This document shows positions 40,270 through 45,269 of a DNA stretch of 64,000 nt, one piece after another (the first letter of the stretch is position 1; every line of letters starts with the position of its first letter). The translations under genes and the position numbers were made by a program. Under the pieces are notes generated by a model that saw only the letters and a list, made by a program, of their open reading frames with translations, made no database searches and was not told the DNA's origin. Source of the DNA: a bacterium (GTDB lineage Bacteria > Electryoneota > JAOADG01); NCBI GenBank assembly GCA_026417415.1, contig JAOADG010000037.1:1-64000 (forward strand). The letters are read 5' to 3'.

Positions 40270-41421
40270 TCAAAATACACGATAACTCATCTCGATAAAA
40301 AATCGAGAAGCGTTGTAGTTTTTGTATTTCGGTACAGTTGGGTTAGGAGAAGTGGTCAAACGCTTTTCAAATTCAACACGTGGAGTAACCGTGATATAAC
40401 GCATCAATTCTTTGCGTACTTCAATACCAACAGTTTGTAGGATATGCTTTCTACCCCTATGAAATGGTGCATCTTGTAATGAAAGATTTGTAGTGTACAC
40501 TCGGTTACGTATGCGGTAATCTGCAGCAATTTCTAATTTACCTATGTTTTCAAGTTCTATTGCATAACTTCCTGAAACAGTAGCATCATCTTCATCATAG
40601 GAAGAATCACCGTACTCACTTTCAGCTGACACTGGATTTAACACAATAGAACCAGTCGCTTGTGAATGTCCCACATTATCCATCGTAACAAATTTATATT
40701 CCAATTGGAATTGTAACTTTCTTATCGGTTGATAGGAGATTTCTATTCCCAACGAATTTCCTTTGGAATCAAATTCAGTAAAGTAGGGATTGTAATAAAT
40801 GGTACGGATTGTATAAAGCGGTGTAATTGTCCATTCAGGAACAAAACGAATCGGAAACTTCAATCTAAATTCGGAATAATCATATTCTGCGGTTTGCCAT
40901 TTGCGAGTATCACGATCCGTGAAGTTCCGTAAATAAACGTTATCCATAAAAGTATATTCAAGCCGAACATCAGCATGTTTACTAAGTTGTTGTTGAAATT
41001 TCAACCAGAAAGAACCATAATTCATCGGACTATTTTTAGAATAATTGTACCACTTTCCAATGAAGCCATAAGAGGTTTTTTTAGTCGAAAATAGGTAGTG
41101 TTCATATGATCCACGAACACTAAAACAATGAATCCAATCACTTAAACTTGAAAGTGGAGTAACTTTATTGATAGGTTCAGTTCCATTTTCAAAGCGATCC
41201 ATTTCAAACTGAGAATACTTCAAAACATTTGAATCATATTCAGGAATATATTCTAAGTACAATCTAAATTTACTGGGTTTGATTTTACTGCGTTGTGGTT
41301 TGGAAAAGTCATAGGGCATTCGTCTTTTTTGCGAACTTTGGGCAGCAGAAACTGCGAAACCGCTGAAAAAAACAGCGAAGACAAGTAAACAACGAATTAC
41401 AAAAATAAATCTTTTTAGCAA
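40270..41421 (-). CDS. predicted outer-membrane beta-barrel protein of the pgs locus
   Basis: A 383-residue secreted protein with a signal peptide (about 1-28). The rest shows alternating polar/aromatic strands (for example LYLEYIPEYDSNV, FQLEYKFVTMDN). It ends in SYRVF, a C-terminal Phe with alternating aromatics, which is the BAM recognition signal of outer-membrane barrels. No named family recognised. TTG start with AGGA. It follows the repeat protein by 2 nt, so it is very likely translated with the pgs genes. It may form the outer-membrane exit or anchor for the polymer; inferred. Confidence 0.62.
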   Translation of the reverse strand: MLKRFIFVIRCLLVFAVFFSGFAVSAAQSSQKRRMPYDFSKPQRSKIKPSKFRLYLEYIPEYDSNVLKYSQFEMDRFENGTEPINKVTPLSSLSDWIHCFSVRGSYEHYLFSTKKTSYGFIGKWYNYSKNSPMNYGSFWLKFQQQLSKHADVRLEYTFMDNVYLRNFTDRDTRKWQTAEYDYSEFRLKFPIRFVPEWTITPLYTIRTIYYNPYFTEFDSKGNSLGIEISYQPIRKLQFQLEYKFVTMDNVGHSQATGSIVLNPVSAESEYGDSSYDEDDATVSGSYAIELENIGKLEIAADYRIRNRVYTTNLSLQDAPFHRGRKHILQTVGIEVRKELMRYITVTPRVEFEKRLTTSPNPTVPKYKNYNASRFFIEMSYRVF

Positions 41422-41423
41422 AA

Positions 41424-42314
41424 TTATTTTCCTGTATTTTTAAGTGATGTTTTAGGAATAAAGATACGATTTAACACGCGAATGTCTTTATCCAATACAT
41501 GAATGGAGATGTTGTGTTTTCCTTCAGGTAAATTTAAGTTAATCGTACTTCCTGAAGTAACCACATAATCACTTTCTTTGGCATGTGTAGCAACATTGCT
41601 GATTGTTTCTTCACAAGGAAAAACGCCTAACGATTGTCCATTGCTTTTGACTTCAATTCGCCATTTGAAAATGCGTTCTTCATTCCCACCTGGAACTTCA
41701 GCACGACTAATGATGCGTAATTTGGTTGGACCATTGATTCGAAGTTCCAAAGGACGTTCAGAAGTTTGGCGATAGTAAGTGGCTTCTTGTTCTCTGACCA
41801 CGATACCGACCAAATCTTTGAAGCCACGAGGTGCCATAGACTGCCATTGTTGGGGTTCACCTGTATCAAACACCCGTTTGCTAATTCGTAAATAAAGTGT
41901 GGTAGTATCGCTTGGCTTAAGAACCAACTTATGTTGTCCGTCAGGGATACGAAAATCTAAATCTCTTCGGGCGGTTAAGCGTAATCCATTTGGACCTTCT
42001 GCATCACGTGCGGGTCCTGCTGTTTCATTAAATTCTACCGGCAAACCATCGTCTAATGCGGCAAGCACTTGATATTGCCGTACAGAAGTGCTTGCAGCAA
42101 CACGAACAGATACACGTAGAATAGAAGGTCCTTCAATGTTTACCACCAAAGGATTGGTATGTGTGGCTGGTGAATAACGAATCAGTTTACCACCAATAGC
42201 AACAGGGAATCCATGTTTACTTTTTGGAGGAGGTTCAATGACTTTCCAAGTTGCTCCAATTGTACTGCTTAAATACACGGTAGTTACAATTAACGCTGTA
42301 ATCAAGCGTTTCAT
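41424..42314 (-). CDS. secreted protein with a duplicated beta-rich repeat, pgs locus
   Basis: A 296-residue protein with a signal peptide (about 1-20). It contains two copies of a domain of about 100 residues. IEGPSILRV (60-68) corresponds to INGPTKLRI (193-201), and IPDGQHKL (123-130) to LPEGKHNI (262-269). Each copy looks like a beta sandwich. One Cys only (C234). No family recognised. It lies between pgsW and the barrel gene with gaps of 14 and 2 nt, so a periplasmic role in polymer handling is likely. Confidence 0.62.
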   Translation of the reverse strand: MKRLITALIVTTVYLSSTIGATWKVIEPPPKSKHGFPVAIGGKLIRYSPATHTNPLVVNIEGPSILRVSVRVAASTSVRQYQVLAALDDGLPVEFNETAGPARDAEGPNGLRLTARRDLDFRIPDGQHKLVLKPSDTTTLYLRISKRVFDTGEPQQWQSMAPRGFKDLVGIVVREQEATYYRQTSERPLELRINGPTKLRIISRAEVPGGNEERIFKWRIEVKSNGQSLGVFPCEETISNVATHAKESDYVVTSGSTINLNLPEGKHNISIHVLDKDIRVLNRIFIPKTSLKNTGK

Positions 42315-42328
42315 AATAATCCTCCAAA

Positions 42329-43486
42329 TTACTTGCTGATAGGAAGGGTATCAGGATCTACACCTTCCTCTTTCAAAGCATAACGACGACGGTCAAATTC
42401 AACAACTATCCCGAAAAATAACAAAAAGATGGCTAAAGCAACTGCAGTAACACGAATGTCATAACGTTCAGTTGAATAAACTCCACCTGAACCGGGTGCA
42501 GGTAAGGGGACAGGTGATTTCGGTAAATGATGAACAATCGCAATTTGAATGGCATCGTACAAATGAATAAATGGAATCCCTTGATCGGCATATTCATGTA
42601 GCACACCCCGATTGGGATAGTTTCTTGAGGGTAAAACAGGGGAATACCCTGTGGGAATGAGTTGAGCATTTTCTGGATGACCTAATGCTGCAGCACCGCC
42701 ACCAACGGTTAAAAACAATTTCGGTTTTCCTTTTCCATACATTTCATAGATTCTCATGCGATAGGCAATTGAGGAATCCAAAGACAAACTTTCAAACAAT
42801 TCAACACCATTACGTGCAATAGCATCACGAATACGAATCCGTCCTTTATCAGACAGTCCGCGCCCATAATCTCCACCACCACCAATCGTTGCTACCACTG
42901 AACGATGATGAATAATCCTCTTCTCATAAAGAATTCTCTCCATATCCAGCCAAGTGAAGTCGGGATCATTAGCCCCCCATTGTGCAGATCCTACTGCAGT
43001 AATGATAATCGGTTTCAATTGAAGTGCTTCAATGGCACAAAGCGTGGCTAAGTTCAAACCGGGTAATGATCCAGTCAAGGAAACAGCAACCACATCTCCC
43101 TTTTTTAAGTTTGCTTCCATCAAATAACTTACCACAGCAGCTGCCATATTCGGATTAAGTGACGTTAGTGCCCATTCTATGTTCCCGCTTTCCGTAGTGA
43201 TGGGAGAATCTTGACGTCCAATCAATGCAGTTGCGTTAGGATCATTGATGGGATCAATTTCTGATGGCGAAGTATTTCCAAAACGTTCTTGGCGTAAAAC
43301 CTGTAATCCTTGGAGCATGGTTCTTGAAGCGAGTAACTTCGTTTCGTAATTCGGCAAGCGAACTTGACGTCTTGATGTTTCAGCCCAAATAAAGCAAAGT
43401 ATAGATAGAATTGCTAAAATTACCAATGTAGTAGGATCACGAAGCGAGGGCTTAAACATTTTGATTTTGGAGCGTAAACTAAACAT
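42329..43486 (-). CDS. pgsW: PgsW family poly-gamma-glutamate system protein
   Basis: About 385 residues: an N-terminal membrane helix (about 15-32), a periplasmic alpha/beta domain with GDVVAVSLTGSLPGLNLA, ITAVGSAQWGANDPDFTW and TIGGGGDYGRGLS, and a C-terminal membrane helix (about 345-362). This is the pattern I associate with the PgsW family found with PgsB/PgsC in Gram-negatives. I chose the ATG at 43486, which overlaps the pgsC stop by 8 nt and has GGGAGG upstream. The longer frame starts within the SD. Confidence 0.8.
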   Translation of the reverse strand: MFSLRSKIKMFKPSLRDPTTLVILAILSILCFIWAETSRRQVRLPNYETKLLASRTMLQGLQVLRQERFGNTSPSEIDPINDPNATALIGRQDSPITTESGNIEWALTSLNPNMAAAVVSYLMEANLKKGDVVAVSLTGSLPGLNLATLCAIEALQLKPIIITAVGSAQWGANDPDFTWLDMERILYEKRIIHHRSVVATIGGGGDYGRGLSDKGRIRIRDAIARNGVELFESLSLDSSIAYRMRIYEMYGKGKPKLFLTVGGGAAALGHPENAQLIPTGYSPVLPSRNYPNRGVLHEYADQGIPFIHLYDAIQIAIVHHLPKSPVPLPAPGSGGVYSTERYDIRVTAVALAIFLLFFGIVVEFDRRRYALKEEGVDPDTLPISK

Positions 43487-43934
43487 TAGGGAAGAACCTC
43501 CCACCGGTTGCTATCATCACCAATAGCCGAGTAGTTATGGAACAGATAAGAACAGCAGAAATTGTTTTCACAATTCCTTGTCGCTCCATCCAATTGGCAA
43601 TAAGACCCGGAACCACGAAACCGATGGCTTGCAAGCCCGGATCTAACGGCAACATATGGGAAGCGACCAATTGTCTTGATAAATAACCAAAGATAAAACC
43701 CAAGAGAATTGATAAAACCAATCGCCGTCGTCCAAAAAGAAAGACAAAGTTGGAAATAAAGCGTAACAATATCCAAACTAAAAAACTAACAACAAATGTG
43801 GCGAGTAGCGATAAAGGTTGATCCAATTGTAGCGCCACATAGCCCGGTACTACAATTCCACCTGCGGCTACCCCCAAAGTTTCTTGGAATAGAAGCGAGA
43901 GAACCACTCCTAAACCTACAGTTGCTTCAATCAA
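43479..43934 (-). CDS. pgsC: poly-gamma-glutamate biosynthesis protein PgsC/CapC
   Basis: A 151-residue integral membrane protein with four hydrophobic helices. It begins IEATVGLGVVLSLLF and contains GGIVVPGYVAL, the conserved motif of PgsC/CapC. It forms the membrane part of the polyglutamate synthase with PgsB. The TTG start has a strong GGAGG 7 nt upstream and overlaps the pgsB stop by 8 nt. It also overlaps pgsW, so the three are coupled. Confidence 0.9.
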   Translation of the reverse strand: MIEATVGLGVVLSLLFQETLGVAAGGIVVPGYVALQLDQPLSLLATFVVSFLVWILLRFISNFVFLFGRRRLVLSILLGFIFGYLSRQLVASHMLPLDPGLQAIGFVVPGLIANWMERQGIVKTISAVLICSITTRLLVMIATGGRFFPNV

Positions 43935-45123
43935 GGCCTGTCCTCCGATCGCGGAATAAATTTGCTACAGCGAGGCCACCAGCACCGACATTTCCAATCC
44001 CAATGACAGTTCCGCCTTCACTGCCTACTTTACTAAAAATCGCTTCAAAAATCGTTTCCGGTTTCGTTATCCCTAATGTGATCACTTTTTCTACGGGAAT
44101 ACCATATTTTGCAAAATATACCAATAGGCGATCTGTACGTTCACCAATCGAGAAAAACCAATCGTGTTCAATATTTTCACCCACCATTCGCAACAACTGC
44201 AAGGAACGATCAAAGCGGTCAGCGCGAGTATTCAATAAAACAATTCGAGTTCCCATTTTTCCTTGATAGCGTTCCACAGCTTTTTGCCAAATCATCAGTG
44301 TTGATTCTGGATCGTTAGCCGCCATTGCATTAACAAAACGACACCATTTACCTTTGTGTTCAACACGAAAGATTTTCAAAGCCCCTGAATCTGGATAACA
44401 CGTATGCATTCCTTTAAGAGCCACTGAACGTGGAATGTTCAAGGATTGACAAACTGTTAAAGCCAACGCCACATTTTCCGGATGTTCAACGTAACTAAAG
44501 CCAGCCATATCTTCAGCTGTAATAGAATCTGCGATGGCGCTACGCGCAGGTGTGACTATAGTAATTTCTGTATTTCTCTGTGCTGCAACTTCTTGAAAAA
44601 TTTTAGCCATCTTGCGTTCTGCTGTAAAAAATTTTGCACGAACGGGAATAGTATTTGATAGAGAGCGTGTTACATTTTCTACTGTCGGACCCATTTCCAT
44701 CAAATGATCGGGGCGTGCATTGGTAATAACACCATGCGTTGCATGAATGATTTGATGTTCGCAAATCCATTGATATTCTGGTTGAACAGCCATGCATTCA
44801 ATCACGATAGCTTGAGGTTTACGTTTAGACATGAATTTGATAATCTTGATTTGTTCTAAAATATTTGCATTAGAACGGCGTTGAATGGCAATTTCTAAAC
44901 CATTTTCGTCAATGATACGTGGAAGAGTTCCGGTTGTTTTTGCTAATGTGCGGTAGCCACCTGCACGTAAACCGGCTGCAATTAAACGGGTGACAGAAGA
45001 TTTGCCACGTGTACCGTTGACATGCACACGTATGGGAATGGAATAAATTCGGCGTTGATGGAGAAAGTATTCCGTAGTCCACCAAACCAAAATGATTACA
45101 AGCAATAGTAGTACCGCAGTCAC
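43927..45123 (-). CDS. pgsB: poly-gamma-glutamate synthase ligase PgsB/CapB
   Basis: A 398-residue Mur-ligase-like amide ligase. One N-terminal membrane helix (about 3-20) is followed by the P-loop RVHVNGTRGKSSVTRLI, then ECMAVQPEYQ, VITNARPDHLMEMG, NAMAANDPEST and LLNTRADR. It polymerises glutamate through the gamma carboxyl with ATP. GTG start with AGGAG about 11 nt upstream; GTGA overlaps the stop of a small membrane ORF. No pgsA/capA-type gene follows. Confidence 0.93.
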   Translation of the reverse strand: MTAVLLLLVIILVWWTTEYFLHQRRIYSIPIRVHVNGTRGKSSVTRLIAAGLRAGGYRTLAKTTGTLPRIIDENGLEIAIQRRSNANILEQIKIIKFMSKRKPQAIVIECMAVQPEYQWICEHQIIHATHGVITNARPDHLMEMGPTVENVTRSLSNTIPVRAKFFTAERKMAKIFQEVAAQRNTEITIVTPARSAIADSITAEDMAGFSYVEHPENVALALTVCQSLNIPRSVALKGMHTCYPDSGALKIFRVEHKGKWCRFVNAMAANDPESTLMIWQKAVERYQGKMGTRIVLLNTRADRFDRSLQLLRMVGENIEHDWFFSIGERTDRLLVYFAKYGIPVEKVITLGITKPETIFEAIFSKVGSEGGTVIGIGNVGAGGLAVANLFRDRRTGLD

Positions 45124-45269
45124 GAGGAATACTGCTCCTGCTTATAATTGAAAAAAATGGTTAATGGATAAAGAATCATTGCAATTGAAAATACTAAATG
45201 GAATGGCGAGTCGTAGAGGAAATTAGATGTTGTTAGGTAAAACATCGAATAGGATGCGGCTTGCACCAT
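45120..45269 (-). CDS. small membrane protein (49 aa) heading the pgs locus, possible PgsE-like subunit
   Basis: A 49-residue ORF that is easily overlooked. It reads MVQAASYSMFYLTT at the start, then a hydrophobic helix, LVFSIAMILYPLTIFF (about 25-40), and a charged tail NYKQEQYSS. GGGGAG sits 5 nt before the ATG. Its TGA overlaps the pgsB GTG (GTGA), as in other true coupled genes here. B. subtilis pgs operons carry a small membrane protein, PgsE, after pgsA; similarity here is in size and topology only. Confidence 0.6.
   Translation of the reverse strand: MVQAASYSMFYLTTSNFLYDSPFHLVFSIAMILYPLTIFFNYKQEQYSS

What the first reader, a model, noticed from the sequence alone, without database searches (positions are those of the whole stretch)
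40270..45269. Poly-gamma-glutamate locus adapted to a Gram-negative envelope
Six overlapping or near-abutting genes run in order: a small membrane ORF, pgsB, pgsC, pgsW, a secreted repeat protein, and a barrel ending in SYRVF. The Gram-positive order pgsBCAE includes PgsA, which is missing here. PgsW plus two secreted proteins may replace it. The unknown proteins would be candidates for a trans-periplasmic route and outer-membrane exit or anchor for the polymer.
Basis: partly seen in the sequence, partly recalled or inferred. Interest (0 to 1): 0.7.

Follow-up and report, generated by a model that had tools for sequence, protein, structure and literature searches.

The report
Polyglutamate export machine across two membranes
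A five-gene bacterial operon combines the known enzymes for making polyglutamate with two undescribed proteins, a positively charged periplasmic protein and an outer-membrane channel, that together probably carry the polymer through a double-membrane cell wall, a step for which I found no described machinery.

Summary
On the minus strand at 40270-45123 lie pgsB, pgsC, pgsW, a secreted two-domain protein (Rep) and an outer-membrane-type barrel, nearly abutting. The sixth, 'small membrane ORF' is found in no relative and is dropped. Rep and the barrel match no Pfam or NCBIfam family and no PDB sequence.

AlphaFold2 gives a confident 14-strand barrel (pLDDT 89) and two tandem beta-sandwiches for Rep (pLDDT 90). 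In 386 genomes, all 61 with the barrel also have PgsC and PgsW. The cassette is near-universal in the window's own phylum (37 of 39) and spans the FCB group. In at least five other-phylum genomes the barrel lies far from pgsC yet is never found without it. Single-gene fusions join PgsW to Rep, and a Rep domain to the barrel. Rep is strikingly basic (median pI 9.5; exported proteins in the same loci, 5.0), as expected for a polyanion-handling protein.

Best reading: PgsB/C/W make and extrude poly-gamma-glutamate, Rep handles it in the periplasm, the barrel is the outer-membrane exit or anchor. No chemistry is shown. The barrel's conserved residues cluster on its outer face, so a gate or enzyme role is also possible.

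The parts
43927..45123 (-). pgsB: poly-gamma-glutamate synthase (Mur-ligase-like amide ligase), N-terminal membrane anchor, P-loop GTRGKS
   Evidence: TIGR04012 435 bits (cut-off 222.7), Mur_ligase_M 1.2e-8
43479..43934 (-). pgsC: poly-gamma-glutamate synthesis membrane protein
   Evidence: TIGR04011 132 bits (cut-off 96.45); PF14102 6.6e-36
42329..43504 (-). pgsW: membrane protein with TM at residues 25-43 and 350-368 around a ~305-aa domain that the positive-inside rule puts in the periplasm
   Evidence: TIGR04332 291 bits (cut-off 100); hydropathy; in 37 of 39 genomes of the phylum together with pgsC, 2 more keep only a second copy
41424..42314 (-). Rep: secreted, basic, two tandem homologous beta-sandwich domains; proposed periplasmic polymer guide
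   Evidence: AlphaFold2 pLDDT 90.3; halves homologous, prob 99.85; pI 9.6; Foldseek hits to tandem CBMs and BcsB; PgsW-Rep fusions
40270..41421 (-). Barrel: signal peptide plus 14-strand outer-membrane beta barrel ending in F; proposed outer-membrane exit or anchor
   Evidence: AlphaFold2 pLDDT 89.2, pTM 0.82; Foldseek CymA/OmpG; strand in/out alternation; phylogenetic profile

Best explanation
A poly-gamma-glutamate (PGA) synthesis and trans-envelope export operon of a diderm bacterium. PgsB with PgsC makes the gamma-glutamyl chain at the inner membrane, and PgsW works with them at the periplasmic side (inferred from families and topology). The polyanionic chain enters the periplasm, where the basic two-domain Rep protein binds and guides it (inferred from charge, fold and fusions). 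The 14-strand barrel lets it out of, or holds it at, the outer membrane (inferred). Shown here: gene order, conservation, exclusive co-occurrence, fusions, predicted folds, charge. Not shown: that PGA is made, that it passes through Rep and the barrel, or the order of contacts.
For: PgsB, PgsC and PgsW are above curated cut-offs. Six Omp85-family matches in the genome: it has an outer membrane. The order B-C-W-Rep-Barrel is kept across the phylum and in named loci of KSB1, Neomarinimicrobiota, Bacteroidota, Stahlbacteria/WOR-3, Fermentibacteria, Hydrothermota and others. 61/61 genomes with the barrel have PgsC and PgsW; 311 genomes have neither barrel nor PgsC; Fisher p = 7e-58 for all, 8e-18 collapsed to approximate family counts outside the phylum (families are not fully independent). 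In at least five other-phylum genomes the barrel sits inside a different contig from pgsC yet is still present only with PgsC. Two genomes of the phylum that lack PgsC also lack Rep and barrel. PgsW-Rep fused in one ORF in L121, L122, L123, L125, L133, with a third TM that keeps Rep periplasmic; a Rep-type domain fused to the N-terminal, periplasmic end of the barrel in about 11 loci. Rep median pI 9.5 against 5.0 for exported-like ORFs of the same loci, p = 1e-29. Folds: 14-strand barrel; Rep like tandem CBMs and the periplasmic cellulose-synthase subunit BcsB.
Against: No biochemical data; the polymer is inferred from PgsB/PgsC family membership. Conservation of the barrel is highest at its extracellular end, not along the lumen, which a plain pore does not demand. 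Lumen-facing positions are only slightly more positive than negative. Some diderms have PgsBCW without a detectable Rep or barrel (L144, L157, L160), and Flavobacteriia carry another barrel-like protein instead. The Foldseek similarity of Rep to BcsB is weak (TM about 0.2) and shared with many beta-sandwich proteins.
Confidence: 0.68

Rival explanations
1. The barrel is not a passive exit but an outer-membrane enzyme (like omptins, OMPLA or LpxR) that cuts, caps or attaches PGA at the cell surface, using the invariant N65, S70 and H321 on its outer face. Export would then need another route.
For: N65, S70 and H321 are invariant in 44 divergent barrels; R165, R324, K367, D218 and R354 are nearly so; conserved positions lie in extracellular loops and outer strand ends (outer against inner p = 2e-6). 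Extracellular loops of porins are usually variable (general knowledge).
Against: No sequence or listed fold match to a known outer-membrane enzyme. The pattern also suits a structured gate or an anionic-ligand site. The window's own barrel carries S and A at the near-invariant D94 and D318.
Confidence: 0.2
2. PgsBCW here makes some other secreted gamma-linked or poly-amino-acid polymer, and Rep/barrel export that.
For: Only family membership argues for glutamate. A second PgsW paralog is linked to gamma-glutamyltranspeptidase and deacylase genes in the phylum, which shows only a gamma-glutamyl theme.
Against: PgsB and PgsC are above equivalog cut-offs; Rep is basic, so the cargo is probably acidic. 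PGA-like staining has been reported around Cloacimonadota cells, which carry a CapB/C/A operon (PMC13082233).
Confidence: 0.1
3. Rep and barrel are unrelated envelope proteins that merely sit in a conserved operon.
For: Operons can carry passengers; the carriers are related to one another through the FCB group.
Against: Exclusive co-occurrence even where genes are unlinked, two kinds of gene fusion, and the opposite charge of Rep.
Confidence: 0.05

Closest known systems
PgsBCA(E) / CapBCA(DE) poly-gamma-glutamate synthetase of Bacillus and Fusobacterium nucleatum
   Same: PgsB and PgsC orthologs in the same order. F. nucleatum is a reported Gram-negative PGA producer with a homologous operon (PMC3815933).
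   Different: No pgsA in the locus. PgsW, Rep and barrel follow pgsC. The published models that I could read name no outer-membrane part: CapsuleFinder bases one PGA model on B. anthracis, although it states that diderms need at least one more protein to cross the outer membrane (PMC5542703).
NCBIfam TIGR04332, poly-gamma-glutamate system protein (PgsW)
   Same: Window protein 291 bits against a cut-off of 100.
   Different: The NCBIfam entry concerns PgsW alone. No paper in the library mentions TIGR04332 or links pgsW to PGA, and no Rep or barrel model exists in Pfam or NCBIfam.
Synthase-dependent exopolysaccharide secretion (Bcs cellulose, Pga PNAG, Alg alginate)
   Same: Works-like: inner-membrane synthase, periplasmic beta-sandwich subunit (Rep resembles BcsB), outer-membrane barrel (4y25, the polysaccharide secretin, is rank 25).
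   Different: Amide ligase instead of a glycosyltransferase; Rep is a beta-sandwich protein without a predicted helical (TPR-type) part; 14 predicted strands instead of 16-18; no sequence homology.
14-strand outer-membrane porins CymA and OmpG
   Same: Best fold matches of the barrel (E 6e-10 and 6e-9).
   Different: 8-10% identity, TM about 0.5; here the outer-face loops are the most conserved part.
Cloacimonadota CapB/C/A operon (PMC13082233)
   Same: Diderm group with phylum-wide PGA genes; DAPI staining interpreted as PGA.
   Different: That operon is described as CapB, CapC, CapA with typical Gram-positive organisation; my search of its text found no mention of 'outer membrane' or 'export'.

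Membership tests
Poly-gamma-glutamate synthesis system (PgsBC core) | PgsB equivalog | tested here: met
   TIGR04012 435 bits, cut-off 222.7
Poly-gamma-glutamate synthesis system (PgsBC core) | PgsC equivalog next to PgsB | tested here: met
   TIGR04011 132 bits, cut-off 96.45; overlaps pgsB by 8 nt
Poly-gamma-glutamate synthesis system (PgsBC core) | The product is PGA | not testable with these tools
   Needs chemistry
Gram-positive-type PgsBCA(E)/CapBCA(DE) operon | pgsA/capA in the operon | tested here: not met
   No PF09587 in the five genes; the domain is on another contig in a 978-aa protein
TIGR04332 PgsW subfamily | Score above the curated cut-off | tested here: met
   291 bits against 100
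Synthase-dependent exopolysaccharide secretion (Bcs/Pga/Alg) | Processive glycosyltransferase | tested here: not met
   No glycosyltransferase in the cassette; the synthase is a Mur-ligase-like enzyme
Synthase-dependent exopolysaccharide secretion (Bcs/Pga/Alg) | Outer-membrane beta barrel | tested here: met
   AlphaFold2 14-strand barrel, pLDDT 89.2; Foldseek
Synthase-dependent exopolysaccharide secretion (Bcs/Pga/Alg) | Periplasmic TPR or TPR-like domain | tested here: not met
   Rep is all beta apart from the signal peptide and a short C-terminal helix; no TPR hit
Wza/OPX-type capsule exporters | Poly_export / Wza outer-membrane protein | tested here: not met
   No Pfam hit for Rep or barrel
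Outer-membrane enzymes (omptin, OMPLA, LpxR type) | Catalytic residues at the outer face of the barrel | tested here: inconclusive
   Invariant N65/S70/H321 at the outer end, but no homology and no geometry measured

The most novel reading that the evidence does not exclude
A previously undescribed trans-envelope export pathway for a poly-amino-acid polymer: PgsW, the basic Rep domains and a 14-strand barrel form a continuous conduit from inner to outer membrane across the FCB group. The conserved outer face of the barrel may act as a gate or surface-attachment site, assisted in many phyla by the neighbouring LVIVD-propeller lipoprotein and gingipain-type C25 peptidase.
Probability: 0.35. Interest if true: 0.85.

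Novelty: new variant of a known kind. Interest (0 to 1): 0.72.

Why it matters
How diderm bacteria move polyglutamate across the outer membrane appears not to have been described in the papers I could read: the published capsule model for PGA has no outer-membrane component although its authors note that diderms need one (PMC5542703). The two protein families found here are exclusive companions of PgsBCW in about 60 of 386 genomes and across many phyla, which makes the question directly testable. It would add a poly-amino-acid counterpart to the cellulose, alginate and PNAG export machines, and suggests that PGA surface layers are common in the FCB group.

Tried and rejected
Small ORF 45120-45269 as a sixth part: rejected, no relative in any locus. 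L134 as a Rep-Rep-barrel fusion: set aside, since an internal signal peptide after a truncated Rep end suggests a frameshift joining two genes. Flavobacteriia barrel-like protein (cluster c41) as a homolog of the barrel: not supported (hhalign probability 5.5%). Sequence relatives of PgsW, Rep and barrel in the PDB: none for PgsW and barrel; only chance-level hits (E 0.33-0.96) for Rep. Weak TIGR02221 (Cas) hit of the barrel, E 0.016, 15 bits against a cut-off of 76: chance. Weak barrel or Rep hits (E 1e-4 to 1e-10) in some genomes were not counted. Distances between conserved residues in the models could not be measured because coordinates are not given to scripts. Structure prediction was limited to two jobs, so neither PgsW nor a complex was modelled.
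Full report
Observation. The window carries, on the minus strand, five nearly abutting genes: PgsB 43927-45123, PgsC 43479-43934, PgsW 42329-43504, Rep 41424-42314 and Barrel 40270-41421. The first three are above the curated cut-offs of TIGR04012, TIGR04011 and TIGR04332; Rep and Barrel match nothing of note in Pfam or NCBIfam. The upstream neighbour is folD and the downstream neighbour an Mrp-type ATPase gene.

Organism. The genome is 2.2 Mb in 40 contigs, 100% complete. Contigs of its phylum mates match public records of LCP-89, 'Calditrichaeota' and KSB1 bacteria of the FCB group. One of them, RPQS01, is named as a class of Candidatus Electryoneota in PMC10439189, so the phylum is probably Electryoneota; this is inference. 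Six Omp85-family matches show an outer membrane.

Conservation. In 39 genomes of the phylum the barrel profile finds 37, and 27 of 27 high-quality genomes. The order B-C-W-Rep-Barrel is kept. The two genomes without barrel also lack PgsC and Rep and keep only a second PgsW copy. A named scan with PgsW alone returned 80 loci; of 62 with at least 3 kb beyond PgsW, 56 have Rep and 50 the barrel. These include KSB1, Neomarinimicrobiota, Bacteroidota, Krumholzibacteriota, Stahlbacteria/WOR-3, Fermentibacteria, Eisenbacteria, Hydrothermota and Latescibacterota records. The scan keeps the closest relatives, so these fractions are not a random sample.

Co-occurrence. The same 386 genomes were searched with barrel, PgsC, Rep and PgsW. 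Sixty-one have a strong barrel, and all 61 have PgsC above cut-off and PgsW. Fifty-seven have a strong Rep, all with PgsC and barrel. Fourteen have PgsC (seven of them below cut-off) without barrel, and 311 have neither. Fisher p is 7e-58, and 8e-18 after collapsing to approximate family counts outside the phylum; relatedness makes these optimistic. In at least five other-phylum genomes (such as G041, G364, G233, G278, G189) the barrel lies inside a different contig from pgsC, so the link does not depend on operon position.

Fusions. In L121, L122, L123, L125 and L133 one ORF holds PgsW followed by Rep. In L121 a third hydrophobic segment between them keeps Rep on the periplasmic side. In about 11 loci a Rep-type domain precedes the barrel in one ORF (L116, L121, L122, L123, L125, L131, L132, L133, L140, L150, L158). 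L134 looks like a frameshift merger and is not counted.

Structure. The barrel model (44-sequence alignment) has pLDDT 89.2, pTM 0.82 and 14 strands with long loops on one side and short turns on the other. Foldseek's best matches are 14-strand CymA and OmpG; a polysaccharide secretin, 4y25, is rank 25. Inward positions are polar and outward ones hydrophobic in nearly all strands. Conservation is concentrated at the extracellular end: N65, S70 and H321 are invariant, and R165, R324, R354, K367 and D218 nearly so. The Rep model has pLDDT 90.3 and two tandem beta-sandwiches; its halves are homologous; Foldseek finds tandem carbohydrate-binding modules and, more weakly, BcsB.

Charge. Rep has median pI 9.5 in 97 sequences, against 5.0 in 137 exported-like ORFs of the same loci (p = 1e-29). 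This fits binding of a polyanion.

Mechanism. Most likely PgsB/C/W make and extrude poly-gamma-glutamate at the inner membrane, Rep guides it and the barrel releases or holds it at the surface. The synthesis step rests on family membership. Topology, fusions, charge and fold support the route, but no step has been assayed. The conserved outer face leaves open an enzymatic or anchoring barrel.

Extras of the neighbourhood. Outside the phylum the cassette is often flanked by a Peptidase_C25 gene and an LVIVD-repeat propeller lipoprotein; the propeller stays beside the barrel even where the barrel is unlinked from pgsBC (L168, L174, L175). These are candidate accessory parts, absent from the window's locus.

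PgsA. It is absent from the locus. A PF09587 domain occurs in a 978-aa exported protein on contig C36 (36 of 39 phylum genomes have the domain), beside a C25 peptidase with a Por secretion tail and phosphate-transport genes. Whether it takes part is unknown, so 'replaces PgsA' is not established.

Known. PGA operons of Bacillus and Fusobacterium are pgsBCA-type (PMC3815933). Cloacimonadota have capBCA with PGA-like staining (PMC13082233). CapsuleFinder has one PGA model with no outer-membrane part (PMC5542703). No paper found links PgsW, Rep or this barrel to export. The library covers open-licence papers only, so earlier description elsewhere cannot be excluded.

Noticed in passing
L022:8918-11629 (own genome C9) and L024, L027, L029, L032, L033, L043, L047, L050, L052, L057, L058: A second, shorter PgsW paralog (~330 aa, no TM found by hydropathy in the own copy) lies beside a gamma-glutamyltranspeptidase; in one family also beside a DctM-like permease and an AspA/AstE-type deacylase. 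It looks like a gamma-glutamyl polymer breakdown or uptake locus.
   Followed up: partly
L165:254-8259 (own genome C36): A C25 peptidase with Por_Secre_tail stands next to a 978-aa exported protein with a PgsA/CapA (PF09587) domain, upstream of phosphate ABC-transporter genes.
   Followed up: partly
L097, L098, L101, L112, L141, L146 and others: Peptidase_C25 (~1200 aa) and LVIVD-propeller lipoprotein genes flank the pgs cassette in many FCB phyla; possible accessory or surface-attachment parts.
   Followed up: partly
L114, L115, L119, L120, L129, L156: Flavobacteriia keep pgsBCW-Rep but have a CarboxypepD_reg lipoprotein and another barrel-like protein, with no detectable homology to this barrel, in the barrel's place.
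   Followed up: partly
window:40270-41421: The window's own barrel has S and A at positions 94 and 318, where nearly all relatives have D.
   Followed up: no
L144, L157, L160: Myxococcales and Spirochaetota records carry PgsB/PgsW (PgsC too in L144 and L160) with no Rep or barrel beside them; their outer-membrane exit is unknown.
   Followed up: no
L176:7812-8633, L177:7987-8811: A ~274-aa two-domain protein, apparently a strongly diverged Rep, sits between pgsW and the barrel in another family.
   Followed up: partly
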